DNA of 64,000 bases from Arctopsyche grandis (Eukaryota; Arthropoda; Insecta; Trichoptera; Hydropsychidae), in NCBI RefSeq assembly GCF_051622035.1, contig NC_135358.1, positions 1,304,501 through 1,368,500 on the forward strand, in the 5' to 3' direction. The position numbers and the translations under genes were made by a program. The notes below the pieces were generated by a model, which was given only the letters and a program-made list of their open reading frames with translations, was not told the DNA's origin and made no database searches. Shown piece after piece: positions 5,494 through 64,000 of the stretch; position 1 is the first letter of the stretch; every line of letters begins with the position of its first letter.

Positions 5494-5497
5494 TTAG

Positions 5498-6808: not shown

Positions 6809-6812
6809 TTAA

Positions 6813-7010
6813 ATAGTAGAAATTATTTGCAAAAAGTCATCTCAATACTATCAAAGCCAAAACGCGAGTCTTCAACTTTAGTCTACTGTAAGAATGAAAT
6901 ATAAAATTCAGATGATTTGAATGAATCTGCAAGTGCAAAAATTCGCAGACAAAATTATCAATTTGCTCATTAGATAATGACTAATTCAGTGTAATGTATT
7001 CTCAGTTAAA
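6813..7010 (+). repeat. Duplicated segment, uninterrupted paralogue of 17285-18345
   Basis: The run CATCTCAATACTATCAAAG, the following ACGCGAGTCTTCAAC and the downstream GAATGAATCTGCAAG are shared with 17285-17338 and 18253-18345. The second copy is split there by a hAT element, and this copy is the empty site. In both places a piggyBac-like end lies upstream, so the two loci probably derive from one duplicated segment. Confidence 0.75.
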
Positions 7011-41079: not shown

Positions 41080-41881
41080 CAGGGTTGCCAATATTCTGGC
41101 GATGCTGACCCGGAGATTTTTTTATGTGGATAGGGGGGGGGGGGGGTTAATTTAAAAAAAATCTTAGAAATACAGAAGAATTAAAAATAATGAAGTAAAT
41201 GCTTTATAAAATTATATAATGTCTTACAAAAACTTAATTTTTTCAAGTTATATTTTATTTCTCTGCGCATATTGAATTAGGGACTTCTGTTCTGGGGCTT
41301 TTAAAAATGTGTAAAAAATTTCGTAATCCATATAAAAATTAAGCCGAATTGCCAGTTCGGACGTAACTAAATTTAAGCGCATTATATTTGTCATTCCTCC
41401 AAATGGATTCCATTATAGAAAAAATGCGTTCAACAAATGCATTGCTGATTTGGATAGACAAAGCTTTCCATAATATTTTTTTTAATTTCAGTTGTTTTCG
41501 ACTTAAAAATTGTCACCCAAATCTTTACATTTTTTTTATATACATTTAGTAACTAGTGGTTTTATCCGGCTTCGCTCCGTATTTGTAATAGTAAACATTA
41601 ATTTATTTTTTTATTAAATTTATTTAAATAAAAAAAAAATATTCAACGATATCGATATCGTCGTCATAGAAACTTTGATTTGTTTTCGATGTGCCCAACA
41701 AACTTTATATACATAGTTACAAAGTCTCTTTCGAAACTATACTTATATATTTGATTAAGTTTTCCCACCACGAATGATAAAATTTGACCACTGACCCGGA
41801 GATTTTGTTTGTAAACCCTGAGCCCAGAGATCGACCGTCAAACGCAGTCTCCGGGTCAAAATGACGGTGTTGGCAACCCTA
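41080..41881. mobile_element. hAT-like non-autonomous element, 802 bp, with a nested Helitron
   Basis: Ends CAGGGTTGCCAA and TTGGCAACCCTA, flanked by CTACTGGC (41072-41079) and CAACTGGC (41882-41889), 7 of 8 matching. Copies of TGACCCGGAGA lie near both ends. No transposase frame was seen. A reverse-oriented Helitron occupies about 41553-41753. Confidence 0.75.
41553..41753 (-). mobile_element. Helitron copy nested in a hAT element
   Basis: The 3' end reads CTAGTGGTTTTATCCGGCTT on the plus strand. The 5' part contains ACAAAGTCTCTTTCGAAA, the reverse of the family start. The terminal TC is diverged, so that limit is approximate. Confidence 0.65.
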
Positions 41882-45600: not shown

Positions 45601-46389
45601 GCTGAAATACAAAATGAAAATGCTAAATTTGACAAAAATTGATGCCCAAAATACGTGTTTCTACTCATTGACCATACCGGTGATCAAAAGAAAACAAAAA
45701 TAGCATGCATATGTATTATACTGAGGTCTGCAGCCCCACAGCCCATGTAAAGTGAAATATTGATATTGGCATCAGCGGTTCTATGGAAATGTGCCGTGGC
45801 CGCACCAAATTTTTATTTATGTATTTATGGTGACCCTGATATACTATGGTGTTCAAGTTCGGGGAGTTGGGTTTCAATGAATGCATTGCCACCCGCTATT
45901 TCTTTTATACATATGGTAAATTTTAAATATTGATGAAATTAAAAAAAAAAACCATTCTTTTTGAAGATCAAAACTAATGAATTGATATCGATCCCGATAT
46001 ATGGTTTGCTACACGATCCAAAATACTTCCCTGACCCTGAAAAGTTTGATCCTGAGAGATTTTCCGATGAGAATAAAGGTTCAATAGACCCAATAACTTA
46101 TTTGCCATTTGGTGTTGGTCCTAGAAATTGTATAGGTAAATATGTATCTGTATGAATAAGACAAAATAAATTTCGTGATAATTGGTAATTTTTATAATTT
46201 TTTATAGGATCTCGATTTGCTCTGTTGGAGATAAAATTGATTGCTTTTCATATGTTGTCCAAATTCGATATTATACAAACAAAAAATACGCAAATTCCGA
46301 TCGAATTTGAGAGAGGAACTTTGCAGTTAAGATTTAGTAAAAATGGATTGCGTCTTGGACTTAAACCGAGATCATTGAATTTAACTTAA
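42678..46389 (+). CDS. Cytochrome P450, CYP3 clan, CYP9-like (541 aa)
   Basis: Nine exons join in frame: 42678-42895, 42969-43132, 43202-43336, 43402-43607, 43676-43904, 44011-44232, 44298-44398, 45967-46135 and 46208-46389. The protein opens with an N-terminal membrane anchor (about residues 3-22) and a proline-rich KPPLPFLG hinge. It then has the C-helix WKEMR, the I-helix AGFDTSS oxygen-binding motif, the K-helix ETLR, the DPERF segment and the haem loop [11 protein letters not shown] with its cysteine ligand. All the hallmarks are intact and the length is normal. Microsomal monooxygenases of this clan usually handle lipophilic xenobiotics or endogenous substrates; the substrate here cannot be told. 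Intron 7 (1568 bp) holds a hAT element and its donor GTTGGC is non-consensus, yet the [16 protein letters not shown] junction fits the family with no missing residues. Confidence 0.92.
44545..45905. mobile_element. Probable outer transposon fragment in P450 intron 7
   Basis: CAGTAGCGGCTCGTGAG on the left and a segment with GCAGCCCCACAGCCC and GGCCGCACC on the right of the inner hAT look like parts of one older hAT-type element. The outer ends do not pair convincingly, so limits are approximate. Confidence 0.4.
44616..45663 (+). mobile_element. hAT transposon in P450 intron 7, degraded, 1048 bp
   Basis: TAGAGACACGTATTTTGGGC at the left and its inverse at the right (GCCCAAAATACGTGTTTCTA) pair over 22 bp with one mismatch. 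CTCATTGA is duplicated exactly at 44608-44615 and 45664-45671. The plus-strand frames 44668-44916, 44874-45098 and 45153-45350 are pieces of a transposase. The last holds the dimerisation motif [20 protein letters not shown]. It is a different hAT lineage from the TAGGGTTGCC elements. Confidence 0.88.
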
Positions 46390-47478: not shown

Positions 47479-47735
47479 AAAATCACGTTTTTGAGTTACC
47501 AGAGCAGAGACTAACCAATCTTTACTAGGTTTGACCCACTGAATTCGAATATGATGCTGATTTTTGTTGTTTGGGTCTCCTTTGCGAGATATGAGCGTTT
47601 AAAAAAATGCGCACTTTTTACAGATTTTTGGCTTTTAAAATGCTTTGATTAAATCAAACATAAAAATAATTGTTTTGTTAAAACCTTGCAGTTTAATATT
47701 TAATTCATTTAAATGTAAACACAAATCAGTAGTTG

Positions 47736-47795
47736 AACACACGACAGATTTCGTTAGGATGTCTTTGGGGTCAATCATTTGCTTTCTGTTTCTGC
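47736..47795 (-). pseudogene. Orphan scrap of peritrophin linker plus domain start
   Basis: On the minus strand the frame reads RKQMIDPKDILTKSVVCSTT, nearly the linker RKQMIEPRDILTKSVVCSTT that joins the repeated first domains of the gene at 53403-54935. It abuts, at about 47796, DNA shared with the 3' flanks of the genes at 48101 and 53403. No full domain remains. It marks a recombination junction. Confidence 0.75.
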
Positions 47796-48000
47796 CTGAC
47801 CAAATGTAAATTTTGGAGACAATAAAATATTTGGTCAATTATTATTTAAAGTTCGTCATTGACTACATATCTATATATGTACATATATAAGAATTTAATT
47901 TTTAATGTGTTTAATAAGTTAATTTGATTAGTGAATAATTTTGTTGGATTAATAAAAAAAGGAAATAATGAAAGTGTTGTTTAATTTTGAACACATTATG

Positions 48001-48006
48001 TTTATT
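48001..48006 (-). terminator. Poly(A) signal of the 48101-49147 gene
   Basis: AATAAA on the minus strand about 95 bases after the stop. It is conserved in position at 53303-53308 in the paralogue. Confidence 0.6.
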
Positions 48007-48100
48007 ACTATTTTTACATAATACATAAATAAATTATCACAAATAAGTAAATGCTACTTATTCTAATTATTGAGATCGATATAAGGAAAGTAAAAGTGGT

Positions 48101-49147
48101 TTAAGGGAAAAATTCCGGGACTTCTACAGAACATTGAGCTTGATTGGGATAATCGCATACAGATAATGCGGCATTGAATTCCAGATTGGATGGACATTTG
48201 TGTCGAAGTGGAATTCCATGGGAACAAATGTAAAAGTGTTGGCAACTAGTTGGATCTGCTTGAATTTCTACAAAGCCGACATCTGAAGAAGTTGCACACA
48301 TTACAGATTTTATTGAGGCTTTGTGTGTGTTTCTGAAATGATCTGTCTTTGACGCGACTTTGCATCCTGCAACCGATGGGTGATCGCATACTTTCTTAGC
48401 TGGATTGAAATGCAAACCAGCTGGGCAGTCTCTGCATATCGGAGGCAAAGTTTCGATCACGCAGTAGTAGAAAAGTTCACAATCATCTGGGTGAGGCAAC
48501 AGCCTGTCATCGGGAAGAGTTTGAGCACACGAAACTGGTGTGACGCTGTTCTGTATACATCTTTGGGAGATATTGTTCTCGTGAGGAGTGACTACTTGTT
48601 CAAGCTCGGTTTTGCCAATGGTTCTGATTATCTTGTTTTTAATGTCTACCTTGTATTTGGTTTGGTTGTCAGTTATGCATCCGCCGTATTGTGGGAAGTC
48701 GCATCGTTTGGATGCAGCTCTAAAAATCGTTCCGGGTGGGCAAGACATATGGATGAGTCGTCCCCAGTCGCAAACGTAGTACTTGGTACAGTCCTTTGGA
48801 TCAGGTTTCAGATCCACATATACTCCATTGTGGTCATTACACTGTTCGATTTCTTTCTGCATTCTGGATTCAACAACGGTCTCTGTTCGGCATCCGGCTA
48901 CCTCTGGGAAGTCGCAGACTTTCTTGTTGGGGTTGAAATGTAGATTCGCTGAACACTCCTGTCTATATGGAACTCCATGCGAGCAGATGTAGAAGTGTTG
49001 GCAACTGGCTGGGTCTGCTAGAATTTCTGCCATGCCGACGTCTGAAGTAGTTGAGCACACGACAGATTTCGTTGCTGCTTTGTCAGCTACAGCTACACTC
49101 AGCCCGACAGATACCAGAAAAACTATCAATTTATGGTTAAGCGCCAT
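48101..49147 (-). CDS. Peritrophin-like secreted protein with four chitin-binding type-2 domains (gene A, 348 aa)
   Basis: Single exon. A signal peptide, MALNHKLIVFLVSVGLSVAV, likely cleaved near residue 21, precedes four CBM14 (peritrophin-A) domains: D1 31-86, D2 103-157, D3 197-262 and D4 284-339. D1, D2 and D4 have the six-cysteine pattern with aromatic residues before Cys3 (HFYIC, KYYVC). D3 has eight cysteines (extra ones at 207 and 238). Linkers carry possible N-glycosylation sites NQT and NIS. The family binds chitin in the peritrophic matrix or cuticle, and a gut-lining or cuticle role is inferred. Gene A shares promoter, UTRs and most of its coding sequence with genes B and C. Confidence 0.92.
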   Translation of the reverse strand: MALNHKLIVFLVSVGLSVAVADKAATKSVVCSTTSDVGMAEILADPASCQHFYICSHGVPYRQECSANLHFNPNKKVCDFPEVAGCRTETVVESRMQKEIEQCNDHNGVYVDLKPDPKDCTKYYVCDWGRLIHMSCPPGTIFRAASKRCDFPQYGGCITDNQTKYKVDIKNKIIRTIGKTELEQVVTPHENNISQRCIQNSVTPVSCAQTLPDDRLLPHPDDCELFYYCVIETLPPICRDCPAGLHFNPAKKVCDHPSVAGCKVASKTDHFRNTHKASIKSVMCATSSDVGFVEIQADPTSCQHFYICSHGIPLRHKCPSNLEFNAALSVCDYPNQAQCSVEVPEFFP

Positions 49148-49217
49148 TTCGTATCTTTGGTAGTGTGAGACTGGTGTTTGGCGTATGTCGATTGATACTT
49201 TTTTGAGAGGAAGGCTT

Positions 49218-49227
49218 GGTTTATATA
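49218..49227 (-). promoter_or_regulatory. TATA box of gene A
   Basis: TATATAAACC about 75 bases upstream of the ATG. ATCAATCGACAT, about 25-30 bases further on, is conserved in the paralogues and is a likely start site. Confidence 0.65.
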
Positions 49228-50289
49228 TTATTTTAAAATTTTGAGATAAGACGCACGCTCAATTGTTTTATTACATTTTGTTCCTAATTCCACTTAAATT
49301 ATTATAACAATTGCTTTGAGATATTTAACACGATTCTTCAGAATTCTTCAAATGAAATTGAAGATAATGTTTTGGTCAATATCTGATATGAGATATTGTT
49401 GGGATAGCAGATATTCTATTATATCGTCATTCAAAATCTAATCGATTTAAATACTACATAAACTTGAGATTATAAACTAGATAGTATAAACTAGATAGTA
49501 TAAACTAGACAGTATATAAATCGATGAATAATTAGCTATATGTGTATATATAATATCCATATTTAATTAGTGTGCATATTTTATAGAATTGAATATTGTA
49601 AAATAGCTTATATATTTCAAGTCTTGCAATGTTTTTTAAATTAAAATAAATATTTGGATTTCAATGTTTTGTTTATAAATATAAAGCTTTGTGGAATATC
49701 ATGAAAAATATTGGCGTCCATAATAAATAGACTTTTTTTTTAAATATAATAATAATTTATGCGTATATCAATTTTTTTACATTTCCAATGTCACCGAAAA
49801 TAATTTGAAATTATTATATTATTTTATGATATTGATCTAATTAAAGGTTCGACTTAAACAATATTACCAACTTCTGTATTTTCGAAAAATGTCAACGGTT
49901 AACAGGTTCGACTTAAAAGGAAATATTATACATACGTATGCATATTTCTTTTAGAAGCAGTCTTTCTTGTAAATGAGATCCGATTAAATTGAGAAATACA
50001 AAACATTAAATAGAATGTCACTATATGACTAGTCTTCGGGGTTGGATAAATATTTTTCGCAGAAAATACAGATCACTATTGTTATTTTTTTTTTTAGATA
50101 AACTATCCTTTTTTGCTCTCTTGCTTTGAAAACTAATGAAGCGGTTTATTTTTATTTGCATTCGCGTCTCTCCGCCTCTTAATTACATATGCTTACATGG
50201 CTATTGTTGTTATTAATTTTTAATAAAGAATTTGGAATGAATGATATTGTATGTATTTAAAGGTAAAAGGGGTATCATCATTCAGTAAC

Positions 50290-50590
50290 GGACCAGAAAA
50301 GCAGGAATATCATAGAATGCTTGTTAATTGATAATTTTTTTCGATCGATAAATGATAATCAAACAAAGAATACATAATATATAAACAGGAAACTGTTTTT
50401 ATATTATCTATATTTTTTTATGAAATTCCAAATTATACACAATAAACAATAAAGTAAAAATCTATCATGTTATTGTCGGAGATAAGGAAAAATTGAATAT
50501 AGTTAATGATGTGTATATAGATATACATATATCTGTAATTACTAAGAAAATTATTTGAATCATTAATACCAATTTCCGGTCAATATATAT
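50290..50590 (-). promoter_or_regulatory. Upstream block shared with genes B and C (gene A copy)
   Basis: GATCGATAAATGATAATCAA and, farther out, ATTTCCGGTCAAT recur at similar distances upstream of gene B (56010-56290) and, more diverged, gene C (60680-60940). The block is either retained duplication sequence or a conserved control region. Confidence 0.5.
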
Positions 50591-50591
50591 C

Positions 50592-51075
50592 TAGGGATAA
50601 CAATTTACCGTCAAATTTCATAAACAAGTAAACGGTAAATGATTTTTCCTACTGCCGGTATATCGGTATTTACCAGTAAATGAAAAAAAAAATCGTGGAT
50701 TACATATGTAACTGTATGTGGTTACTTTTCCTAAAAATGTTAACCAAGATTGAACAATTAAAATAAATCTCGGGTGAATAATGACATAAATGAATTAAAG
50801 TAAATCCGTAATAATGAATAATTTTTATTTTTTATTCTTAACCAATCATATTTGTTTATTTAAAGTTTGAACCATTTGAAATTTTCAATCATAATTGAGA
50901 CAACCTTATCCACTATAATTAATATTATGGAATAATATATCTGTATATGTAGATAGTTAATTCGCGATAAAACAGCTTACGGTAAATATTGAAATATACC
51001 GGTATTTACCAATGTTTATATTTTGTTGATTTACCGATAAACCAGTATACCGGTATACCGGTGTTGCAATCCCTA
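50592..51075. mobile_element. hAT-like MITE upstream of gene A, about 484 bp
   Basis: Ends TAGGGATAACAAT and GTTGCAATCCCTA pair with mismatches. Subterminal TTTACCGGTA-type repeats, such as ACCGGTATACCGGT, mark both ends. The target duplication is weak (TATATATC versus GTAATATC). Gene B has the corresponding flank without it. Confidence 0.55.
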
Positions 51076-51079
51076 GTAA

Positions 51080-51790
51080 TATCTATCTATACATGTTCAT
51101 GGGAACATGGAATTTATATGCTCTTTGTTCCACAGGATATCACTTTCTATCTACAGGATAACGTGATACTTTTTTATTTAAATATTTGATGTATTTGCAT
51201 AGTATATTTTATTGAAATTTTAATGCTTAAACTGCTGAAAATGAACTAAATTGTTATTTAAAAAGAATACTACAAAAAAGATTTAGAGTAAATTTTTATC
51301 TTGTCTTTTATATTTGGGCCTCACGGGGATATTTTGTATTCACGGCTGGTTCCTGTACATACTACATATATACATACAAACGTACATAAACACGTACGTA
51401 CGTATGTACATATATACATATGTATGTACATATACTGATACTGAATTTTGATGCAAAACATTTAAAAATTTTCTCCTTATATTATATTTATCTGCCAAAC
51501 CAATGAAGAGGTTGAAGAGAAGGGACTTCTTGGAGCAAGTGAATTGGCAATGGGAATTTCACCCACATGCTAGGAAATTGGCTTGAAAATGTGCTGAATA
51601 TCCCAGACGACAGATAAATGAAAAAAACCGATAATGAAACATACATACACGTTTACACATACGGGCTATGAGAGTATTTTGCAAAGCAAGCAAAGAGACC
51701 AAACTTACACAAGACAAAGTCCTACTTCAGGTTGTTGTATTTTGTACAATTTTTTTTTATTACTTAACATCACTACAATATACATCTACA
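51080..51790. other. Intergenic DNA, no gene recognised
   Basis: AT-rich with ACGTACGTACGTATGTACAT-type microsatellites at 51380-51440. A short phrase at 51500-51560 could encode EEKGLLGASELAMG, but no family is recognised. Confidence 0.35.
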
Positions 51791-52217
51791 TCTAATATAT
51801 AATTTGGAAAGAGACTTTGTATATATTATATGTATGTAACCTTCGTTCGTTGGGTCGTAAATCTGTGACGCCATCGAACAAATAATTCATTTTTTTTCGA
51901 TTCAAAGGATTCGAAGTCCCCGGGGGCAAAAGCGCCGAGGGCGAAGCCGTCTTCGCGCTGGGGCGAAGCCCTAGGGGGCACAGCCGCGGGGCGCAAGGCG
52001 GCGGATTCTGGTATACATATAATTTTTTATAAGAGACTTACTATATATATTCGTTTGTTCGTGACAGGCAATTTAATAAAAAAAACAAATGAGTATTCAA
52101 ATAAATTTATATAAAATAAAACTATTCAAATAAATTCAATAAAATGTATACTATTAGATTAGTCATGTTTAAGTAGTTTATATAAGACATACTGAGCGAA
52201 GCCGGTTAATACAGCTA
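51791..52217 (+). mobile_element. Helitron with a GC-rich passenger, 427 bp
   Basis: Starts TCTAATATATAATTTGGAAA and ends GCGAAGCCGGTTAATACAGCTAG, shown here in parts: GCGAAGCCGG, then CAGCTAG before a T. Unlike its sisters it holds a GC-rich block at 51913-52010 (GTCCCCGGGGGC, GCGCCGAGGGCGAAGCC). Confidence 0.75.
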
Positions 52218-52770
52218 GTATATTGTAAACGTAAAATATCAAGAAGATGTGATCCGTTGAGCGGCTTGGGAGATAATTTAATCCAAAAACTTAAAAAAAG
52301 AGGACAATATATACATATATGTACATAAATACATACATAAATATAAAGGGAGGTACCACTTTTGGTTAACTTAAAAAATTGAAAAAAAATTACGCAGTAT
52401 CGATTAGCGTTTTAGTAACTGATACTTAGTTTCAATTTGATAAGTGTTCAAAAAATCTCCAAAATACAGACACATATTTTTTTTCTAGATCATTAAAACG
52501 TAATCAATGATCGATTCTGAGTTCGAATTAGTTAAAATCTCGAGTTCAAATTTTCGCATTATCACAAAACTTTTGTTGTTACTACGCAATAGATAAAGTC
52601 AAAAATTATTATCGTCATATTAATAGATAATAAAACGTAAATAAATAAAAATATTATCTATAATATATACGTAAGTATATATAATAGATAATAAAACTAT
52701 TGTTATATATTTTGTGACTATTATTATTTATTGAACTTTTGCTGTTATTTGTTTTTTTTTTTATATATTA

Positions 52771-53003
52771 CTAGTTGTTTTACCCGGCTTCGCTCAGTAT
52801 TTGTATTATAAACAGAGTAAACATGGCGAATATAATAGTAAATATTCATTTGTTTTTTTATTAAATTTATTTGAATCGAAAAAAAAAATATTCAACAAAT
52901 TGAATTCTCGTAATAGAAACATTGTTTTGTTTACAAACTTCCCAACCAAAGATACTTACATATTTAAATACATACAAAGTCTCTTTCAAAATTATGTATT
53001 AGA
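52771..53003 (-). mobile_element. Helitron copy, reverse orientation
   Basis: The plus strand reads CTAGTTGTTTTACCCGGCTT at one end and ATTATGTATTAGA at the other, the inverse of the TCTAATAT family. It lies about 100 bp beyond the duplicated 3' flank of gene B. Confidence 0.75.
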
Positions 53004-53302
53004 TGTACCTATAATATCTGTTATATATTTGACCATAAGATTTAAATAAATATTATACATATATGTATATGTATATGCATACATATTTCAATAACCTGAC
53101 CAAATGTAAATTTTAGAGACAATAAAATTTTTGGTCAATTATTATTTAAAGTTCGTCATTAACTACATATGTATGTAGGTACATATGTTTATAAGAATTT
53201 AATTTTTAATTTGTTTAATAAGTTAATTTGATTAGTGAATACTTTTGTTAGATTAAAAAAAAGGAAATAAAGAAACTGTTGTTTAATTTTGAACACTTTA
53301 TG

Positions 53303-53308
53303 TTTATT
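53303..53308 (-). terminator. Poly(A) signal of gene B
   Basis: AATAAA on the minus strand at the same relative position as in gene A. Confidence 0.6.
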
Positions 53309-53402
53309 ACTATTTTTACATAATACGTAAATAAATTATCACAAATAAATAAATGCTACTTATTCTAATTATTGAGATCGATATAAGGAAAGTAAAAGTG
53401 GT

Positions 53403-54935
53403 TTAAGGGAAAAATTCCGGGACTTCTACAGAACATTGAGCTTGATTGGGATAATCGCATACAGATAATGCGGCATTGAATTCCAGATTGGATGGACATT
53501 TGTGTCGAAGTGGAATTCCATGGGAACAAATGTAAAAGTGTTGGCAACTAGTTGGATCTGCTTGAATTTCTGCAAAGCCGACATCTGAAGAAGTTGCACA
53601 CATTACAGATTTTATTGAGGCTTTGTGTGTGTTTCTGAAATGATCTGTCTTTGACGCGACTTTGCATCCTGCAACCGATGGGTGATCGCATACTTTCTTA
53701 GTTGGATTGAAATGCAAACCAGCTGGGCAGTCTCTGCATATCGGAGGCAAAGTTTCGATCACGCAGTAGTAGAAAAGTTCGCAATCATCTGGGTGAGGCA
53801 GCAGCCTGTCATCGGGAAGAGTTTGAGCACACGAAACTGGTGTGACGCTGTTCTGTATACATCTTTGGGAAATATTGTTCTCGTGAGGAGTGACTACTTG
53901 TTCAAGCTCGGTTTTGGCAATGGTATTGATTATCTGGTTTTTAATGTCTACCTTGGATTTGGTTTGGTTGTCAGTTATGCATCCGCCGTATTGTGGGAAG
54001 TCGCATCGTTTGACTGCAGCTCTAAAAATCGTTCCAGGTGGGCAAGACATATGGATGAGTCGTCCCCAGTCGCAAACGTAGTACTTGGTACAATCTTTTG
54101 GATCAGGCTTCAGATCGACATATACTCCATTATGCTCATTACACTGTTCGATTTCTTTCTGAATTCTGGACTCGAAAACGGTCTCTGTTCGGCATCCTGC
54201 TACTTCTGGGAAGTCGCAGACTTTCTTGTTGGGGTTAAAATGTAAATTCGCAGAACACTCCTGTCTATATGGAACTCCATGCGAGCAGATGTAGAAGTGT
54301 TGGCAACTGGCTGGGTCTGCTAGAATTTCTGCCATGCCGACGTCTGAAGTAGTTGAGCACACGACAGATTTCGTTAGGATGTCTCTGGGTTCAATCATTT
54401 GCTTTCTGGATTCAACTGGTTTCAAGAGCGCCGTGCATCCGGCTACTTCTGGGAAGTCGCAGACTTTCTTGTTGGGGTTGAAATGTAGATTCGCTGAACA
54501 CTCCTGTCTATATGGAACTCCATGCGAGCAGATGTAGAAGTGTTGGCAACTGGCTGGGTCTGCTAGAATTTCTGCCATGCCGACGTCTGAAGTAGTTGAG
54601 CACACGACAGATTTCGTTAGGATGTCTCTGGGTTCAATCATTTGCTTTCTGGATTCAACTGGTTTCAAGACCGCCGTGCATCCGGCTACTTCTGGGAAGT
54701 CGCAGACTTTCTTGCTGGGGTTGAAATGTAGATTCGCTGAACACTCCTGTCTATATGGAACTCCATGCGAGCAGATGTAGAAGTGTTGGCAACTGGCTGG
54801 GTCTGCTAGAATTTCTGCAATGCCGACGTCTGATGTAGTTGAGCACACGACAGATTTCGTTGCAGCTTTGTCAGCTACAGCTACACTCAGCCCGACAGAT
54901 ACCAGAAAAACTATCAATTTATGGTTAAGCGCCAT
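53403..54935 (-). CDS. Peritrophin-like secreted protein with six chitin-binding domains (gene B, 510 aa)
   Basis: Single exon. Same signal peptide and layout as gene A, but the first domain occurs three times: D1a 31-86, D1b 112-167, D1c 193-248, then D2 265-319, D3 359-424 and D4 446-501. Each extra unit is 81 codons (243 bp), including the linker VESRKQMIEPRDILTKS, and the copies are nearly identical in DNA, which points to recent expansion. The final three domains and the tail SVEVPEFFP match gene A almost residue for residue. More binding modules should raise avidity for chitin (inference). An assembly error could also inflate a repeat like this, but the scattered base differences between units argue against simple collapse. 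Confidence 0.92.
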   Translation of the reverse strand: MALNHKLIVFLVSVGLSVAVADKAATKSVVCSTTSDVGIAEILADPASCQHFYICSHGVPYRQECSANLHFNPSKKVCDFPEVAGCTAVLKPVESRKQMIEPRDILTKSVVCSTTSDVGMAEILADPASCQHFYICSHGVPYRQECSANLHFNPNKKVCDFPEVAGCTALLKPVESRKQMIEPRDILTKSVVCSTTSDVGMAEILADPASCQHFYICSHGVPYRQECSANLHFNPNKKVCDFPEVAGCRTETVFESRIQKEIEQCNEHNGVYVDLKPDPKDCTKYYVCDWGRLIHMSCPPGTIFRAAVKRCDFPQYGGCITDNQTKSKVDIKNQIINTIAKTELEQVVTPHENNISQRCIQNSVTPVSCAQTLPDDRLLPHPDDCELFYYCVIETLPPICRDCPAGLHFNPTKKVCDHPSVAGCKVASKTDHFRNTHKASIKSVMCATSSDVGFAEIQADPTSCQHFYICSHGIPLRHKCPSNLEFNAALSVCDYPNQAQCSVEVPEFFP

Positions 54936-55005
54936 TTCGTATCTTTGGTAGTGTGAGACTGGTGTTTGGCGAATGTCGATTGATAATTTTTTGAGAGGAA
55001 GGTTT

Positions 55006-55015
55006 GGTTTATATA
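55006..55015 (-). promoter_or_regulatory. TATA box of gene B
   Basis: TATATAAACC at the same distance from the ATG as in gene A. The sequence between TATA box and ATG is nearly the same in A and B. Confidence 0.65.
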
Positions 55016-55024
55016 GTATTTTTT

Positions 55025-57131
55025 TTAGTTTGAGATTAGATTACACACTCAATTGTTTTAATTTTGTTTCGGTGCCACTTCCAGATAAATTTTCATCACA
55101 ATTGCTTGGAGATACAGAGAGCGATTCCTCAGAATCCTTTGAATGAAATTGGAGATTATGTATTAGTCAATGTCCGATATGTCGCATTGACAAAATGACG
55201 ATATTTGATCACTACCTATGTATGTATATACATACATATGAAATATTTTTATTTGACTTAAGAAAAGGTTTTAATAATAATGATAATAAATTATAATAAT
55301 AATAAGAAAGTCTAAAAAATAAGATTTAATGGTTTAAAAATAAGATATTTTATTATTTATGATTAAAAAATAAGATAATATTTCAATACAAGTTTGAGCG
55401 TTAATAATGTTGGGAATCTCATACAAGACAAATTTCTACTTCCAGTTATTGGATTTTGTACAATTTTTTTTGCTTAATATCACTATACATATTATAAGCG
55501 TAATTGAAAATAATTGAAAAGATCAAAATAAAAGTATATAAAATGCAAATATAAATTTTCAGCTCGATACGCTTAGGGCCGGGCCGCACCGTAAAACTTT
55601 GTCGGCCGACTAGTTACGCGACACGAGAAAATGTATGGAAATGAGTGCGACAAACAAGTTGATGGATATATTTAAACGGATATACGAAAACTTTATATAT
55701 TGTTACTACTTATGTACATACCTACATATATGTATAATAGATAAAGTAAAAATCTAACCAACTGCTATTAGGTCAATTGGTTACAGGTTTAAAAGAAAAA
55801 GGTAAGAACAAAGTTTTTTTTTTTAAAGAGGTAGCAGTCTTTTCTGCAAATGATTAGATTAAAACATACAGAACATGAAATAATATGTCATCAGTGGCAA
55901 TGCTTAGATATGATGATTGTTGTTAATTAATTTAGATATTAGAACAGATAAGATTAAATTAAACGAAATAAGAAGTATTATGGCAAATAGGAAGCTCAAA
56001 GATCGATTGCCAATCAATAAACTTTGTCGTACGATAAAAGATAGTCAAACAATGGGATTCACGTTTGCTCTTCTAGTAAATACGATGCTGGTGATAACAC
56101 GGCAGGAAACGGTTTTTTTTTTATATATTTAATGCCAAATTATATAGATAACAAATTATATTATATACAAATTATACAATAAACAATAAAAAATTGTTTT
56201 TGTAACAATACAAAATTAATCATATACCTAGTAGTTAACGACAAATATAATTTCCGAGAAAATTATTTGAATTATTTCAATTTCCGGTCAATGCGTATCA
56301 TCTGTGAATTTTGTAATACACATAATCATAGTATCAATTTTTTTGCTGCTGAATTTTACTTACATATGTATGTATTTCACCATCATATATGTATGTACAT
56401 AAATATGTAGTATAATTTGTATTTATTTAATAACCACGCAAGCTCATATTATCATGATATAATTGCACTGAAGTACTTATTTACTGTGTACATTGTGTAA
56501 TGTATAACATGCGTACATATGTATATGTATGTACGTAATGAATTTGATCGATATTTCAATGTTAAAATTACTCATTATTAAACTAAATCTTTGAATTTAT
56601 TTTGATTATATATAAATTTGGAGATTTTCTGTTAGTAATCGTTACACAATAAAACAATTGATATTATTTTAATATTGAAGTATTTATTTAACATATTTGG
56701 GTGCCCATTTTTAAAAAGGTCTTACTACATATGTACATACATATGTATGTACATATTTTGTCTTTCAATTTTCTAATTTAAAAAAAAATAGTTACTCAAG
56801 TATAATTTTTAAAATATTGTTGTTTCTGTAGCATTCTGGTTACAATGTTCGTAAGCTATGTACATATGTAGTTCATTGTATCTATCTAAAAGTTGGAATT
56901 TTCTTTTGTGTTTTTATTAAAACAACACCTGCATCCATAAGCTATGGAGCCTCCTCTAAGTATTCTAAACAAATAAATAATTCTATTTAAAATTTATCGA
57001 TGAAATTTTCTAGATTTCCATTTTTAAACCGAGTGCAATAGGTTTATTTCCACTGAATAGTTTTTAACAAATTCAATATGTTGATTTTATACATTAATAA
57101 TTTGCTCTCCATTACGTAAATAAGATATGCA
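55025..57131. other. Intergenic DNA upstream of gene B
   Basis: The first 200 bases resemble the gene A upstream region (CTCAATTGTTTTA and CACAATTGCTTGGAGATA). Near 55575 a GC-rich phrase GGGCCGGGCCGCACCGTAAAA may be one end of a MITE. Block 56010-56290 matches the upstream blocks of genes A and C. The rest is AT-rich with microsatellites. Confidence 0.45.
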
Positions 57132-58120
57132 CTAGGGCTTCCAAACCGGTTTAAACCGAAACCGAAAAGCCGGCTTTTTGACCATTTTTCAAAAAAACGA
57201 AAACCGGCTTTTTGGCTCGATCAACCGGCTTTTTAAGGTTTTCTTTAATTAATGTTTTTTTCCTCAAAATTAAGAATTTTTATGAAAGAAAATAAATGTG
57301 TATAAACGCTCTTAGGTAATAGGCGTATATTTCTTTGAACAAAAAAAAAGCTACATTACTTTCTTTCTTGATCGGTTTCTTTGAGATTTAGTAATGGACC
57401 AGGTCATAAACCAATAAAATATTATTGAAAGTATGTAGTTTCAATGACCTACCCAACTTCAGGTATAGAAAGCATAGTTATCTATCGCAAATCCTTGTAC
57501 TTGAAAACGTCAAAAAAAGTAGTCAAATGATTTATGGCAAAATGTATAGGAATTTCCGAAATATAATTGATTTTTCTTCGAAGGAATTGCCCTTTAAATA
57601 TTGAGGCCACATACCTACTTTTATTATGGATTTAAAATGTTCGTGATCAAATGAATTTGCCGTTTCAAATGAATTTGTTTCCGAAATTTGCAACGGTTGC
57701 TTTTGGATTTTTTAAGCTAAAACAGATGCGTAAAAACAGCTTTGAAATCTCTTTATCTATAATCTATCTAGCTTATTTAAATCATTTAATTATATGTGCG
57801 TATTTAGGATCTGCCATTTTACGACTGTGATATATGTACACATAATACAAATTGTATTATTTGTAATATTTGTAATAATAATATAAAGTAATGATCTTAT
57901 GAAAGTTCATAATGTTTATAACTTAATTTAATTTATAAAAAACTATTTTTTTGCATAATATAGATATATATTATGCAAATATATATGTACATATTTACAT
58001 TTTTTTTTCGATATAAAAATTTTATTTTTCTAAAACCGGTGAAAGCCGGCCAACCGGCTTTTTATTTGTAAAAAAACCGAAAAACGGCTTTTTATTTCGG
58101 GTGGTTCTTTGGAACCCCTA
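57132..58120. mobile_element. hAT-like non-autonomous element, 989 bp
   Basis: Flanked by GATATGCA at 57124-57131 and 58121-58128. Ends CTAGGGCTTCC and GGAACCCCTA pair with one mismatch over ten bases. Many copies of AACCGGCTTTTT cluster in the outer 120 bases of both ends, as expected of transposase-binding repeats. No transposase frame exists. Confidence 0.8.
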
Positions 58121-58348
58121 GATATGCACACATGTAATATGTATTTATAGTAATATGTAATATGAAATATGATATGAAAATGAAATATGTATGTTAATTT
58201 GAACTTGATTGGTTAGTTCTGGTTAGAAATATACCGAGCAATTCTTTTGATTTGTTAAAATAAAATATATAGATATCATTACGAATATGGAACTGTAAAC
58301 TAAACGTGAATAATTCTCACGTGTTCATGTAAGTATGTATATCGAGTA

Positions 58349-58589
58349 TCTAATATATAATTTCGAAAGAGACTTTGTAACTATGTATGCATGTAAGGTT
58401 TGGGTAGGAGCATCGAAAACAAATCAAAGTTTTTATGACGATGATATCGATATCTGTTGAATATATTTTTTTTCGATTCAAATAAATTGAATAAGAAAAC
58501 AAATGCTTACTATTACATTAGCCATGTTTAAGTGGTTTATATTACAAATTATATTACAAATACCGAGTGAAGCCGGGTAAAACCACTAG
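58349..58589 (+). mobile_element. Helitron copy between genes B and C
   Basis: Starts TCTAATATATAATTTCGAAA, ends CCGGGTAAAACCACTAG, flanked by A and T. About the same length as the first two copies at 23443. Confidence 0.8.
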
Positions 58590-58832
58590 TAATATATGAT
58601 AATATAATAATATTATGAAGTGTAATTTTGAATAAATCTTTCAAGGTTTTAATAGCATGTATGTACATATGTATGTAGGTATGAATATTAAGAATTGTTC
58701 AAATTATGAAACTGTTGTTAAATTTGGAATATATTCAATTTATTAATTTTTTTATACAATATATAAATAATTAAAATTAATTATGAATGCTATTCGATTG
58801 AGATTAATATTAAGAAGATTAAATGACATAAA

Positions 58833-59879
58833 TCAAGGGAACAAATTCGGGACTTCCACAGAACATTGTGCTTGGTCGGGATAATCGCATATAGATAATT
58901 CGGTATTGAATTCTAGGTCGACTGGACATTCGTGTCTATAAGGAACTCCATGCGAGCAAATGTAAAAGTGTCGGCAACTTGTTGGGTCTGCTTGAATTTC
59001 CACCAAGTCTACGTCCGAAGTAGTTGCACACACCACAGATTTCGTTAATTTTTTGTGGGTATTTCTGGAAAGTGCTGGGTTTGGCGTAACTTTGCATCCT
59101 GCAACCGGTGGGTGATCGCATACTTTTTTGACAGGGTTGAAGTGCAAACCAGCCGGACAGTCTCTGCAGATCGGAGCCAAAGTTTCAGTCACACAGTAGT
59201 AGAAAAGTTCGCAATCATCTGGGTGAGGCAGCAGCCTGTCTTCGGGAAGAGTTTGAGCACATGAAACTGGTGTGACGCTGTTCTGTGTGCATCTTTGCGA
59301 GATGTTGTTCTCGTGAGGAGTGACTACTTGTTCAAGCTCGGTTTTGGCAATGGTATTGATTATCTGGTTTTTAATGTCTACCTTGGATTTGGTTTGGTTG
59401 TCAGTTATGCATCCGCCGTATTGTGGGAAGTCGCATCGTTTGAATGCAGCTCTAAAAATCGTTCCAGGTGGGCAAGACATATGGATGAGTCGTCCCCAGT
59501 CGCAAACGTAGTACTTAGAACAGTCTTTTGGATCAGGTTTCAGATCCACATATATTCCATTGTGGTCATTACACTGTTCGATTTCTTTCTGCATTCTGGA
59601 TTCAACAACGGTTTCTGTTCGGCATCCTGCTACCTCTGGGAAGTCGCAGACTTTCTTGTTGGGGTTGAAATGTAGATTTCCTAGACACTCTTGCCTATAT
59701 GGAACTCCATGCGAGCATATGTAGAAGTGTTGGCAGCTGGTTGGATCTGCTTGGATTTCTGCGTAGCCATCGTCTGAGGTAGTTGAGCACACGATGGATT
59801 TCGTTGAAGTTCCGTCAGCTTTAGTTACACTTAGGCCGATGCAGACCAGAGCAAATACTAATTTATGGTTAAACGCCAT
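58833..59879 (-). CDS. Peritrophin-like secreted protein with four chitin-binding domains (gene C, 348 aa)
   Basis: Single exon, same length and domain order as gene A (D1-D2-D3-D4). The signal peptide is MAFNHKLVFALVCIGLSVTK. D2 and D3 are very close to genes A and B (for example GGCITDNQTKSKVDIKNQII, as in B), whereas the signal region, D1 and D4 are more diverged. That patchiness suggests gene conversion limited to the middle of the gene. AATAAA lies at 58739-58744 and a TATA box at 59951-59960, both on the minus strand. Confidence 0.92.
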   Translation of the reverse strand: MAFNHKLVFALVCIGLSVTKADGTSTKSIVCSTTSDDGYAEIQADPTSCQHFYICSHGVPYRQECLGNLHFNPNKKVCDFPEVAGCRTETVVESRMQKEIEQCNDHNGIYVDLKPDPKDCSKYYVCDWGRLIHMSCPPGTIFRAAFKRCDFPQYGGCITDNQTKSKVDIKNQIINTIAKTELEQVVTPHENNISQRCTQNSVTPVSCAQTLPEDRLLPHPDDCELFYYCVTETLAPICRDCPAGLHFNPVKKVCDHPPVAGCKVTPNPALSRNTHKKLTKSVVCATTSDVDLVEIQADPTSCRHFYICSHGVPYRHECPVDLEFNTELSICDYPDQAQCSVEVPNLFP

Positions 59880-59950
59880 TTTATATTATTTCTAGTCTCA
59901 AACGGATCTTTGGTGTAATGGCGATTGATACATTTTCTACAGGAGGGCTC

Positions 59951-59960
59951 GCTTTATATA
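59951..59960 (-). promoter_or_regulatory. TATA box of gene C
   Basis: TATATAAAGC upstream of the ATG. The conserved start-site phrase TATCAATCGCCAT follows. Confidence 0.65.
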
Positions 59961-61249
59961 CTTACTGTTAATTACAATAGGATGTATCGTATCAGAGATA
60001 AGATTAGGTATTTTGTTTTTTTGATTCCGTTCTGATGCTACTTCCAGTGAAATACTCTTCACGATTGCTTACAGATATTCATTGCAATTTTAAGAATTCT
60101 GATTTAGAATTCTTTCTAATTTGGAGGTAATATTTTTTGCAGTGTACGACGTAGTTTTTGATACTTGGTAAATTGTTATTTATTATTGTAATTATGACAT
60201 TTAATATTCTTTGTATTGTAGTCGTTTTTCTGTGATTTGGTTATCGGTTTTGTGTATTATAAATGCTTATATGTATATGCATATACATACATATGTATAA
60301 TATATCATTCAGCAAACTTATAAATAGACTTCGGGTAGAAATAATTGCAAATAGAAATAGAATGTCCATTAGTATTCAAAGCACGAACCCAAAAAAGCAT
60401 TGTTTTTATAATAATTAATTTTACCATTGTACCGATGACTGGCTGTCTTGTATCGGTGTAGTATATTTTAGTACCAGTATTTTCCCATATATAATATATT
60501 TTTTATTATCAGTTATGGTTGTAATAGTTTATCATATGTGGAGGTGAATTTGTGATGTTTACATGCTAGCGATATACGAACCATATCATCTCAATTACAG
60601 TAATTATAGTTTTGGTAGCAAATTAAGACTAGCTTATAAAAAAAAGGATGAATAATGAGTCGCTATTTTACTGGAAGACCGATTGTCAATTGATAAACTT
60701 TGTTGATCGATATATGGTAATCAAATATTGAAATTCACTTTTGCTTTACTAGTAAATATGATGTTATAAATAAAAGGACAGTTTAATGTCAGTTTAAGCG
60801 AGTTGACCATATAAACTTAGTATGAAACCATTATATGAATATATATACATACATATGTTTGTTGCATATACATACATATGTATTAAATGTTTCTAAGAAA
60901 ATTCTTCGATTGATTGATTGCCCATTTCCGGCTATTATGTTTCATTTAGATATAAACGTGAAGTTTGTATGCATGTGCACTTTACTTCATTCATAGGGTT
61001 GCCACCTCAGACTTAGAAGACCACCCAAAGATAATGACACAAAAAAAATATTATTTCTTTTAATTTTATTCATATAAATTATTATTTATGAAAAAAAAAA
61101 TCACAATTCTACATATATATTATATAAAGTAATAGCAGGTAAATAAAGAAGAAAAATATGAAATCTACATTTATTATTATATATATATGTTATGTGACGA
61201 ATTGTTTTATTGCTTGCATTGCTTGAACTTTTCATTTTTATGAATTGTT

Positions 61250-61375
61250 TATTCATTTATGAATAGTTAATTTATTTTGTTTCTTTTCTGTTATTTTTTT
61301 GACCATTGTGGCGCATTAGGAATTCTTATAATGGCACAATGGTCCAAATGATATAAATAAATAAAATATTAACTA
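61250..61375 (+). mobile_element. LINE tail with terminal hairpin (same family as 20013-20480)
   Basis: GACCATTGTG at 61301-61310 pairs with CACAATGGTC at 61335-61344, with GCGCATTAGG in the loop as at 20431. An AATAAATAAAATA tail follows. Confidence 0.7.
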
Positions 61376-61704
61376 TCAATTAACATATTATAATAAATAA
61401 TATGTTTATTTATGTAGACTTTTCCATATATATGTTTAACATCGCAGACTTTAATTAATTTTTATCTTTGGATCGCAAACCTTGCTTTGTTTAGTTTAAA
61501 ATGCTGCAATAAAAATTCCTCCATAGATATATCTCTGTGGGTGATTAAAATATTAGTACTATATAAAAATGCTTATTGATCGTATTATATAATTAAAAAA
61601 AAATGTTTGTAATCGTATTTGCAATGTTTGACCATAGATGTCGTCTGCAAAAATTTAAAAGTATATAATGGTTATGTATATAATATATGTAATTTGATAT
61701 GTTT

Positions 61705-61800
61705 CTTGATCTGTAAAAAGTACACCCGTCACTTTGGATGCAATCCGTTAGACGAGTGTACATGATTAATTGAATAAATAAATTAAAATGAAAAAAAATC
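61705..61800 (+). mobile_element. Second retroposon tail with a different hairpin
   Basis: GTACACCCGTC at 61720-61730 pairs with GACGAGTGTAC at 61751-61761 with one mismatch. An ATTGAATAAATAAATTAAAA tail follows. The family is not identified. Confidence 0.45.
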
Positions 61801-62202
61801 TTCTGGTTTTTTTATAATAGAAATGCATGGTTTTCGAGACCTCTTGAAATTTTGTGCATAGCTCTGATTGCAAATCATCCCGTACCCTATTGTGATTGTT
61901 CGTCAATGCACATACGTATGTATGTATTTCTCACAATGTAACAATGCTTTCTTAAACCTTCGTACACCTTCTTCGCTTCAGTAACAAAGTTTTGTACACA
62001 AGGCTATTGCCAGATATTTCATACACTAGATATGTGCCACAGACCTCTTTAATCCTTTATTTATACGCTTAGCATACAAATTATGAATTTCTAATATTAT
62101 TTTTATTAATTTATTATGCACCCAAAGAAAAAAAACTCAAACCCAGAGACCGGATACGACTAGCTGAATCCGGATCGTAAGGGTGACAACCCTATTCATT
62201 TA

Positions 62203-63160
62203 CCAAAGTACGTCTGGATTTCCTGAATTGTTATCTCCCTTGTGACACATCGGAAAATACGAATTCGAATATTTTACAGAAATATCCATGCCAAGTTCAA
62301 TAATAAAAAAAAATCATCGATACCTATAAAAAATTGAGTCACCCCGCATATGAATCGTTCATGTCGTGTTGTAAAACGCTGCATGATTAAGTTATTCTTC
62401 AGAAAAATATGTCGAGTACGTTTGCTATTGTGAATTAGACTTTAACAATGGCATTGATAAGGTATACAAATAAATAGGCACCTGGATTATACATATATGA
62501 TTGTGATCATCATGTGACTCGTACATCTTTTATTTTTTTATAATTTATCGTATATATGTATATGTATCATATATATCAAACAAGTGATATGTGTTTGAAA
62601 TAAGTTGTGTTGTATCTGATTTTAAAAAATAACAACTTTTTGCAGCCGACACACACACACCTGGGTTCAAATTCTATTACAACTGAAATTCAAATTCTAT
62701 TACAACAGTATCCGAAAATTAAATGACACAAACCTCACTTAGGTATGGCTCACTTGCGCGAGTTGAATACAAGGGTAGTTCCCTTTGAGGTTATACCTTT
62801 TGTATCCTGTTCATGGCCTGTGCTTAAAATACTGGAATGTTTCCACGGCACACAAAAAGTACCATTGTCGTTTTGTGTTTCGTAGATCATATTTTGCAAA
62901 TGCTATGATTTTTTAAAATTTCTAATTAAATTAACAGAATTTGTTCTAAATAAATTATTCACATATAGATACATATACGTATACAATATTTTGATACAAA
63001 TTTTCGTAGTATAATAACGTAGTATAGTATAATATTTTTTATTTTGGAAATCCTTAATGTTATTACATTTAATAAACCATAATTAATTAAATACTCATCT
63101 ATTGAGCTTAAGTTTAGTATATTTTGTTGTAATGTGATTACTGGATACTTTTGGGTTCGA
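62203..63160. other. Intergenic DNA downstream of gene D, nothing recognised
   Basis: AT-rich, no exon-like frame. A poly(A) signal for gene D is likely near 63037 on the minus strand. Confidence 0.4.
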
Positions 63161-64000
63161 TTAGGCTAGGCATCCCGCAACAGATGGGCGATCGCAAACT
63201 TTTTTGACGGGATTGAAATGAAGGCCAGCAGGACAGTCTCGGCAGATTGGGGGCAACTTTTCAGTCACGCAGTAGTAGAAAAGTCCACAGTCGTCTGGAT
63301 GAGATAGTAAACTGTCTTCAGGAATGGTTTCAGCACATGAAACTATTGTAATGCTGTTCCATATACATCTCAGAGAAATTTCGTCGTTGTGAGGGGTCAC
63401 CACTTGCTCGCGACTCGACTCTACCGTTTTAACCCCAGCATTTGTCTTGGTGGCAATGTGATGAGCATATACTACTGAGTTCGAGTAGGCAAGGCATTTC
63501 GCAGCTGATGGGTTATCACACACTTTTTTAACGGGGTTGAAATGAAGTCCAGCAGGACAGTCTCGGCAGATTGGGAGCAACGTTTCAGTCACGCAGTAGT
63601 AGAAGAGTCCGCAATCATCTGGATGAGATAGCAAATTGTCTTCCGGAATGGTTTCGGCACATGAAACCGTTGTAATGCTGTTCCTTATACATCTCTGAGA
63701 GATTTCACTCTCGTGGGGAGTGACTAGTTGTTGAAGAATCGACTCCAACATTGTAATCCCAGCATTTAACTTGGTGGCAATGTGATTGGCATACCTTTTT
63801 GGGTTCGAGTAGGCTAGGCATCCCGCTACCGATGGGCTATCGCACACTTTCCTGACGGGGTTGAAATGAAGCCCGCCAGGACAGTCTCTGCAAATTGGGG
63901 CCAGCGTTTCACTCACGCAGTAGTAGAAGAGTCCACAGTCGTCTGGATGGGCCAAAATCCTGTCGGCAGGAATGGTTTCGGCACACGAAACTGTTGTAAT
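63161..64000 (-). CDS. Peritrophin-like protein built of repeated eight-cysteine domains (gene D, 5' part beyond window)
   Basis: The frame is open from the window edge to a stop after AGCLA (280 codons visible). It contains three domains, all of the D3 type of genes A-C, in 324-bp (108-codon) repeats: linker LAYSN...HHIATK, then VVTPH(E/N)...RCI, then SHPDDCGLFYYC and CRDCPAGLHFNPVKKVC. The first visible domain lacks its leading cysteine only because the window ends. No D1, D2 or D4 type domain is visible. The signal peptide and promoter lie outside. The role should be chitin binding; the extra disulphide pair is inferred from the two added cysteines. Confidence 0.88.
   Translation of the reverse strand: MTTVSCAETIPADRILAHPDDCGLFYYCVSETLAPICRDCPGGLHFNPVRKVCDSPSVAGCLAYSNPKRYANHIATKLNAGITMLESILQQLVTPHESEISQRCIRNSITTVSCAETIPEDNLLSHPDDCGLFYYCVTETLLPICRDCPAGLHFNPVKKVCDNPSAAKCLAYSNSVVYAHHIATKTNAGVKTVESSREQVVTPHNDEISLRCIWNSITIVSCAETIPEDSLLSHPDDCGLFYYCVTEKLPPICRDCPAGLHFNPVKKVCDRPSVAGCLA

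What the first reader, a model, noticed from the sequence alone, without database searches (positions are those of the whole stretch)
47736..64000. Peritrophin gene array evolving by domain reshuffling
Four same-strand genes are assembled from the same four domain modules: A and C are D1-D2-D3-D4, B is D1-D1-D1-D2-D3-D4 and D is D3 repeated. Whole-gene and single-domain duplication are both visible. That is a natural series for studying how chitin-binding valency changes.
Basis: partly seen in the sequence, partly recalled or inferred. Interest (0 to 1): 0.7.

Follow-up and report, generated by a model that had tools for sequence, protein, structure and literature searches.

The report
Chitin-binding gene cluster, 4 to 24 domains
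In an insect genome, a row of related genes for secreted chitin-binding proteins has grown by copying whole genes, single domains and blocks of domains, so that neighbouring proteins carry 4, 6, 4, 24 and 5 chitin-binding domains; the kind is known, but one gene is unusually long and seems to have welded two half-domains together at a new splice site.

Summary
A (4 domains), B (6) and C (4) are as described. D runs 8.5 kb past the window: a 3040-codon open frame with 23 D3 domains plus a hybrid first domain (24, 3087 aa predicted). A fifth gene, E (D0-D2-D3-D3-D3), follows. A one-domain D3 gene sits on another contig. All match Pfam CBM_14; their starts look like signal peptides (by eye).

In A-C, domains group by module; grouping by gene is rejected (AU p=5e-54). 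E's D3 copies group by gene (99%), as do 20 of D's 23, weakly (55%). Module order never changes, so "reshuffling" is mostly tandem duplication and loss, with gene conversion. D is a nested array: a duplicated 78-bp linker piece, 402-bp units, 4/5-unit blocks, and a 9-unit block duplicated with 11 differences in 3618 bp. Its domains are constrained, its linkers nearly free.

The one new junction: D's first domain joins an E-type exon 1 to the second half of a D3, apparently using former D3 coding sequence as 3' splice site. Predicted; no RNA data.

Most likely these are peritrophic-matrix chitin cross-linkers of graded valency. Tissue, polymorphism and D's exact copy number are untested.

The parts
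48101..49147 (-). Gene A: intronless CDS, 348 aa, signal-peptide-like start (by eye) + D1-D2-D3-D4; TATA-like box 80 bp upstream of the ATG, first AATAAA/ATTAAA 97 nt after the start of the stop codon
53403..54935 (-). Gene B: intronless CDS, 510 aa, signal-peptide-like start (by eye) + D1-D1-D1-D2-D3-D4
54192..54861 (-). Triplicated D1 of gene B, 243-bp period, 2.8 copies, 98% matches
58833..59879 (-). Gene C: intronless CDS, 348 aa, signal-peptide-like start (by eye) + D1-D2-D3-D4
63161..64000 (-). Gene D, 3' end only: last three D3 domains (D21, D22, D23). The gene continues beyond the window to window-equivalent 72493: 23 complete D3 domains plus a hybrid first domain, one predicted 69-bp intron at 72255-72323; 3087 aa predicted
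47728..47788 (-). Relic of the B-type inter-D1 linker and the start of a D1, directly beyond the end of A/B homology (47795 ~ 53095): probable scar of an unequal exchange
47795..49390 (-). A/B homologous block (partner 53095-55181): 96.3% over 47795-49073, falling to 85% just upstream of the ATG and 57% further upstream, 44% past the downstream edge
59262..59621 (-). D1-D2 linker, D2 and D2-D3 linker of gene C: 96.7% identical to A in linker+D2 and 95.9% to B in the D2-D3 linker, against 70-91% in the other coding pieces: probable inter-gene conversion tract

Best explanation
This is one tandem cluster of five genes for secreted multi-domain chitin-binding (peritrophin-A/CBM_14) proteins plus a dispersed one-domain relative. 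Shown from sequence: the genes share modules and module order; whole genes, D1 (in B) and D3 (in D and E) occur in tandem copies; gene D's 23 D3 domains are arranged in nested repeats, the latest of them nearly identical. Inferred: unequal crossing-over between repeats is the engine and gene conversion has patched A, B and C. A deletion from the first intron of an E-like gene into the middle of a D3 made D's hybrid first domain, with a stretch of D3 codons becoming the 3' splice site. Also inferred: the proteins are secreted by the midgut and cross-link chitin fibrils of the peritrophic matrix, each domain binding chitin, so that valency (1, 4, 5, 6, 24) sets cross-linking strength and reach.
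For: CBM_14 in A-E and the solo gene. AlphaFold model of the D3 domain (pLDDT 82.8) matches chitin-bound Avr4 (6bn0, E 1.9e-4) and tachycitin (1dqc, E 1.5e-3). Module tree and AU test. A/B dS 0.10 with dN/dS 0.10; A/C dS 0.34 with dN/dS 0.18. Conversion: the longest identical A/C and B/C runs lie in D2 and its linkers; permutation P for B/C is <1e-4 (all codon differences) and 1e-4 (silent only), for A/C 0.09 and 0.011. D: units 2-10 and 11-19 differ at 11 of 3618 nt; unit types a, c, d and e have exact copies at 4 to 14 units' distance. Between unit types pN/pS is 0.19 in domains and 0.78 in linkers; variable codons that change an amino acid number 24 of 28 in the linker and 5 of 11 in the domain (Fisher p=0.017). 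Hybrid: exon 1 of D and E are 84% alike, both with phase-2 donors; the last 20 nt of D's intron match E's D3 coding at 15 of 20 (1 of 2000 shuffles as good) and E's intron end at 5 of 20; the joined domain scores 47.5 bits to CBM_14, E's own D0 39.7.
Against: There are no RNA, protein or population data; tissue of expression is unknown and no signal-peptide predictor was run. Over 13 D3 copies the 20-nt match upstream of D's acceptor ranges from 11 to 15, and downstream the best copy is D's own D23 (55 of 60; E's copies 52-54), so which D3 was the partner is unclear. The homology of the first 51 nt of D's intron to E's intron is weak (shuffle P=0.027). Six run tests were made without correction, and for all codon differences A/B (0.24) and A/C (0.09) are not significant. 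The D3 clade is weak (62%) and C's D1 groups with D4 (72%). The exact copy number in D rests on one assembly. No other insect genome could be searched, so the order of events comes from paralogs alone.
Confidence: 0.72

Rival explanations
1. The proteins belong to cuticle, trachea or another chitinous layer (CPAP-like) or to an extracorporeal secretion, not to the gut peritrophic matrix; duplication history as above.
For: Sequence alone does not tell tissue. CPAPs are built from the same domain (PMC3504105, passages seen), and the PDB relatives include chitinases, tachycitin and dust-mite allergens.
Against: CPAP1 and CPAP3 have exactly one or three domains; here 4, 4, 5, 6 and 24, and only the solo gene has one. 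A wide range of domain number fits peritrophins (1-16 domains in Bombyx) better than three-domain CPAP3.
Confidence: 0.2
2. Part of the pattern is assembly error: gene D's copy number is expanded or collapsed, or A and B are alleles placed in tandem.
For: D contains exact repeats up to 1617 nt at a 9-unit shift, which can mislead assemblers. A and B are 96% alike over about 1.3 kb.
Against: A and B lose similarity outside the block and differ by two D1 units. D is an uninterrupted 3040-codon frame with diverged edge units and an irregular e-a-b-c-d/e-a-b-c order. A protein search of the assembly (71 matches) found D3-like sequence of 68% identity or more only in this cluster and in the solo gene, so no second haplotype copy of the locus is seen.
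Confidence: 0.12
3. D's first exon and intron are not used: D is transcribed from elsewhere or is a decayed gene, and the apparent hybrid domain is chance.
For: No transcript evidence. The intron is predicted from GT-AG, frame and homology only.
Against: D's region from 340 bp before to 52 bp after the ATG aligns with the solo gene's (296 of 379 aligned bases), and exon 1 with E's (84%). The frame is kept through the junction. The joined domain passes the CBM_14 cut-off at 47.5 bits. Domain codons in the array are under constraint.
Confidence: 0.12

Closest known systems
Multi-domain peritrophic-matrix proteins (peritrophins / PMPs)
   Same: Several CBM_14/ChtBD2 domains after a signal-peptide-like start; domain number varies between genes (1-14 ChtBD2 domains among Tribolium proteins; 1-16 in Bombyx peritrophins)
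   Different: 24 predicted domains in gene D; D3 carries two further cysteines; 134-aa units in nested higher-order blocks; A, B and C have no intron in the coding part
Fungal Avr4 and horseshoe-crab tachycitin (CBM14 proteins)
   Same: Among the best fold matches of the D3 model (6bn0 E 1.9e-4, 1dqc E 1.5e-3); that both have disulfides beyond the usual three is recalled
   Different: Single-domain proteins; no kinship beyond the domain is claimed
Spider major ampullate spidroin genes (PMC9779670)
   Same: Hierarchical nested repeats, strong homogenisation within a gene, conversion between neighbouring paralogs (passages)
   Different: Unrelated protein. The iterated introns proposed there to aid homogenisation are absent from D's array but seem present in two other CBM_14 arrays of this genome
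Introns from exonic sequence in Drosophila (PMC2891723)
   Same: Coding sequence recruited as splice site or intron after duplication (passages)
   Different: Here only the 3' end of an older intron would be replaced, through a deletion that fuses two half-domains
CPAP3 / obstructor cuticular proteins
   Same: Same domain type in tandem with linkers
   Different: Three domains; none of the six genes here has three

Membership tests
Peritrophin-A / CBM_14 domain proteins | Matches Pfam PF01607 above the curated cut-off (22.1 bits) | tested here: met
   A, B, C, the window part of D and E score 100-238 bits, most of D 614; the solo gene's domain is over the cut-off (C6:30057951-30058100)
Peritrophin-A / CBM_14 domain proteins | Six-cysteine core; B. 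mori spacing CX11-15CX5CX9-14CX11-12CX6-7C (PMC7663561 abstract) | tested here: met
   The six core cysteines are present in the D1-D4 domains listed; the first spacing is 17 in D1 and 16 in D2, outside the B. mori range
Peritrophic-matrix proteins (PMPs) | Expressed in midgut and present in the peritrophic matrix | not testable with these tools
   No expression or proteome data
Peritrophic-matrix proteins (PMPs) | Secreted (signal peptide) | tested here: inconclusive
   Hydrophobic starts of similar sequence in all six genes, by eye; no signal-peptide predictor was available
Peritrophic-matrix proteins (PMPs) | Binds chitin | not testable with these tools
   Only fold similarity to chitin-bound Avr4
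CPAP3 cuticular proteins | Exactly three CBM_14 domains with conserved linkers | tested here: not met
   4, 6, 4, 24, 5 and 1 domains
CPAP1 cuticular proteins | A single CBM_14 domain | tested here: inconclusive
   Only the solo gene qualifies; its flanks align best with gene D; known CPAP1 genes could not be compared
Invertebrate intestinal mucins | Long Ser/Thr-rich mucin stretches between the domains (feature recalled) | tested here: not met
   Overall Ser+Thr 11.4-15.3% in A-E
Genes evolving by domain (exon) shuffling | Modules occur in different orders or new combinations | tested here: not met
   Order D0/D1 < D2 < D3 < D4 is kept in all six genes; the single exception is the predicted half-D0/half-D3 fusion in D
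Repeat genes under concerted evolution | Copies within a gene more alike than to copies in sister genes | tested here: met
   E's three D3 group together (99%); 20 of D's 23 D3 group together (55%), units 1, 22 and 23 do not. Domain dS is 0.086 on average among D units 2-20 (171 pairs), against 0.56-0.91 from the solo gene to six D units

The most novel reading that the evidence does not exclude
Gene D is a running length dial. A deletion turned D3 coding sequence into a 3' splice site, welding half of a D0 and half of a D3 into one working chitin-binding domain, and unequal exchange then built a 24-domain chitin tether of mostly 8-cysteine modules in nested steps recent enough that domain number differs between individuals of the species.
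Probability: 0.3. Interest if true: 0.65.

Novelty: new variant of a known kind. Interest (0 to 1): 0.45.

Why it matters
Peritrophins are thought to set the mesh and strength of the gut lining by cross-linking chitin (recalled), but how domain number changes over evolution is rarely seen step by step. Here one genome holds versions with 1, 4, 4, 5, 6 and 24 domains from the same modules, with traces of the steps still legible. That makes it possible to ask directly whether valency alters chitin binding and gut permeability, and whether repeat number varies between individuals. The D hybrid, if RNA confirms it, is an example of coding sequence turned into a splice site while making a complete new domain. 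Two other CBM_14 arrays in this genome seem to carry an intron in their units and are as uniform as intronless D, which bears on the spidroin idea that repeated introns help homogenise repeats.

Tried and rejected
Regex for the domains found nothing because its spacing was wrong; corrected. Folding whole protein A with three sequences gave a useless model (pLDDT 42); one D3 domain with 17 rows worked. NCBIfam gave no match for A-C. Other Pfam names for D and E were set aside: six unrelated families pass their whole-protein cut-off in D, but with no matched stretch that passes on its own, which I read as small scores summed over repeats; in E one CBM_19 stretch is below that family's cut-off.

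Conversion between D1 and D4 inside gene C was considered: 4 of 4 consecutive diagnostic sites (domain positions 24-48) are D4-like, but these may simply be the ancestral state, so it is left open. Telomere repeat TTAGG is abundant (31317 forward and 20972 reverse matches of a 25-base pattern), which speaks against a fly (recalled: Diptera lack it); the order of insect was not determined.

Papers: listings only; passages from PMC7663561, PMC12211885, PMC11871716, PMC3504105, PMC2891723, PMC9779670. PMC9346963 (Manduca chitin-binding domain evolution) is not held, so its results are unknown to me. That I saw no nested-array peritrophin and no domain count above 16 in print rests on the searches and on the passages named, not on whole papers.
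Full report
What was checked. The window is C4:1304501-1368500 of a 475.7-Mb assembly in 189 contigs. Pfam finds 4, 6 and 4 CBM_14 stretches in them, in the order D1-D2-D3-D4, D1-D1-D1-D2-D3-D4 and D1-D2-D3-D4. Positions beyond base 64000 are given below as window-equivalent, that is, C4 position minus 1304500.

What lies beyond the edge. Gene D is cut by the window. Its main open frame is 3040 codons (63164-72283) with 23 complete D3 domains, of which three are in the window. Its predicted start is a first exon at 72324-72493 and a 69-bp GT-AG intron; the protein would be 3087 aa, 337 kDa, with 192 cysteines. A fifth gene, E (74877-76476), has the same kind of first exon, a predicted 76-bp intron, then the rest of D0, D2 and three D3 (507 aa). 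A six-frame scan of 131.5 kb found no other domain above 3.3 bits outside A-E; since it gave the first-half exons of D and E only 4.7 and 4.1 bits, lone half-domains could be missed. One more D3 gene was found in the assembly, on contig C6: 119 aa, one domain. Around its start it aligns with gene D from -340 to +52 (296 of 379 aligned bases; alignment score 290, against 121 for C, 80 for A and 78 for E), and 61 bp of 3' flank are 78.7% alike. It is therefore probably a DNA-level copy of a D-like gene and not a retrocopy. Valency runs 1, 4, 4, 5, 6, 24.

Do domains group by module or by gene? For the 14 domains of A-C, trees constrained by module fit as well as the free tree (AU p 0.44 and 0.52) and the tree constrained by gene is rejected (delta lnL 775, AU p=4.8e-54). 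In the tree of 41 domains (D0 and the hybrid left out) D2 (100%) and D4 (99%) are clades, D1 and D4 go together (87%, with C's D1 nearer D4 at 72%), and D3 is a weak clade (62%). E's three D3 group together (99%). Of D's 23 D3, units 2-21 (20 of 23) group together at only 55%, and units 1, 22 and 23 fall with the D3 of other genes (40% and 67%). Module order never changes, so most of the history is duplication and loss, not shuffling.

How A, B and C came about. A and B share a block (47795-49390 and 53095-55181) whose identity is 94-100% in the coding pieces and 96% in the 3' UTR. It falls to 85% just upstream of the ATG, 57% further upstream and 44% past the downstream edge. Directly at that downstream edge A carries 61 bp of B's inter-D1 linker and D1 start (95%), probably the scar of an exchange in which two units were joined out of register. 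That linker is seen only between D1 copies, so a multi-D1 version was probably involved. C is older (dS 0.34 to A, 0.37 to B; A to B 0.10). Yet its D1-D2 linker and D2 are 96.7% identical to A and its D2-D3 linker 95.9% to B, against 70-91% in the other coding pieces. The longest identical B/C run is improbable under permutation (P<1e-4; silent changes 1e-4). For A/C it is P=0.09 for all codon differences and 0.011 for silent ones; for A/B 0.24 and 0.011, the silent run there covering the D3-D4 end. These are six uncorrected tests. Gene conversion is the simplest reading; protein constraint on D2 would not by itself remove silent differences.

Gene D as a nested array. Units 1-20 are 402 bp, units 21 and 22 are 324 bp; the difference is a 26-aa linker piece that is present twice in the long units (72 of 78 bases alike in unit type e). 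Five unit types recur in the order e a b c d / e a b c / e a b c d / e a b c (units 2-19), each unit within 0-7 bases of its type. Units 2-10 and 11-19 differ at 11 of 3618 bases, seven of them in the first unit, and exact matches reach 1617 bases at a shift of nine units. The edge units 1, 20, 22 and 23 are more diverged. Between six unit types, pN/pS is 0.19 in domains and 0.78 in linkers; variable codons that change an amino acid are 5 of 11 and 24 of 28 (Fisher p=0.017). The domains are therefore kept, and the linkers drift.

The hybrid first domain. Exon 1 of D is 84% identical to that of E (128 of 153 aligned bases) and both end in phase 2. In E exon 2 completes the D0 domain. In D the acceptor lies inside a D3. 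Against 13 D3 copies, the 60 bases downstream match at 48-55 (best D's own D23, 55; E's three copies 52-54) and the last 20 intron bases at 11-15 (best E's three copies and C's, 15); the next 20 bases upstream match at 8 or 9. The 15 of 20 was reached by 1 of 2000 shuffles; E's intron end gives 5 of 20. The rest of D's intron resembles E's intron weakly (P=0.027). The join restores an arginine codon and gives a domain with all six core cysteines that scores 47.5 bits to CBM_14, more than E's own D0 (39.7). The simplest history is a deletion from the intron of an E-like gene into a D3; which D3 is unclear. This rests on sequence only.

What the proteins do. The D3 module, folded with 17 sequences (pLDDT 82.8), matches Avr4 bound to a chitin hexamer (E 1.9e-4, TM 0.66) and tachycitin (E 1.5e-3). 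The ten D3 rows aligned have two further cysteines, one before the domain and one inside; the inner one is absent from the 7 other rows, whose upstream part was not included. Whether the two pair is inference. Peritrophins with 1-16 domains are known in Bombyx, and ChtBD2 proteins with 1-14 in Tribolium. With 4-24 domains, Ser+Thr of only 11-15% and no three-domain CPAP3 plan, a role as peritrophic-matrix cross-linkers is most likely, but tissue is unknown.

Context. Other CBM_14 arrays occur in the genome (150 matches scored of 239 candidates). Two of them, on C5 (342-bp units) and C6 (357-bp units), seem by eye to have an intron in the units translated (two per array) and are highly uniform: 11 of 15 units examined on C5 differ among themselves by 3 bases or fewer, 10 of 10 on C6 by 7 or fewer. 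Rapid array growth is thus a habit of this family here, which lowers the surprise of gene D.

Verdict. The interpretation needs 'tandem duplication, loss and probable conversion' in place of 'reshuffling'. The kind of system is known; the size and nesting of D and its hybrid domain make it a variant worth an RNA and long-read check. Artefact in D's copy number is not excluded.

Noticed in passing
L016 (C5:24246001-24256000), 2657-8068: Tandem array of 342-bp CBM_14 units (15.9 copies, 96% matches); the units seem to hold one intron each, with Thr-rich linkers (by eye); 11 of 15 units examined differ among themselves by 3 bases or fewer.
   Followed up: partly
L017 (C6:6652001-6662000), 3891-7741: Second CBM_14 array with what looks like an intron in the units, 357-bp units, 10.8 copies, 99% matches; similar in sequence to the C5 array; unit differences recur with a period of three.
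   Followed up: partly
L018 (C7:22696001-22706000), 2021-7903 +: 1961-codon open frame with many CBM_14 matches and Thr-rich stretches, mucin-like by eye.
   Followed up: no
L029 (C6:30053001-30063000), ATG at 5301, minus strand: One-domain D3 gene on another contig whose 5' region and 3' flank align best with gene D.
   Followed up: yes
43989-46389 +: Open frames that look like a cytochrome P450 (by eye: [11 protein letters not shown]), about 1.7 kb beyond gene A's 3' end.
   Followed up: no
C4:1384229-1387096 - and 1390159-1390983 + (beyond the window): Reverse-transcriptase-like (LINE-like, by eye) open frame and an inverted similar piece, a few kb beyond gene E.
   Followed up: no
29750-30879: Tandem repeat with periods 100, 301 and 403, AT-rich.
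   Followed up: no
41584-41755, 52763-53004, 58341-58597: Dispersed repeat, aligned pieces of about 165-257 columns, 77-82% alike, in both orientations, near and between the genes.
   Followed up: no
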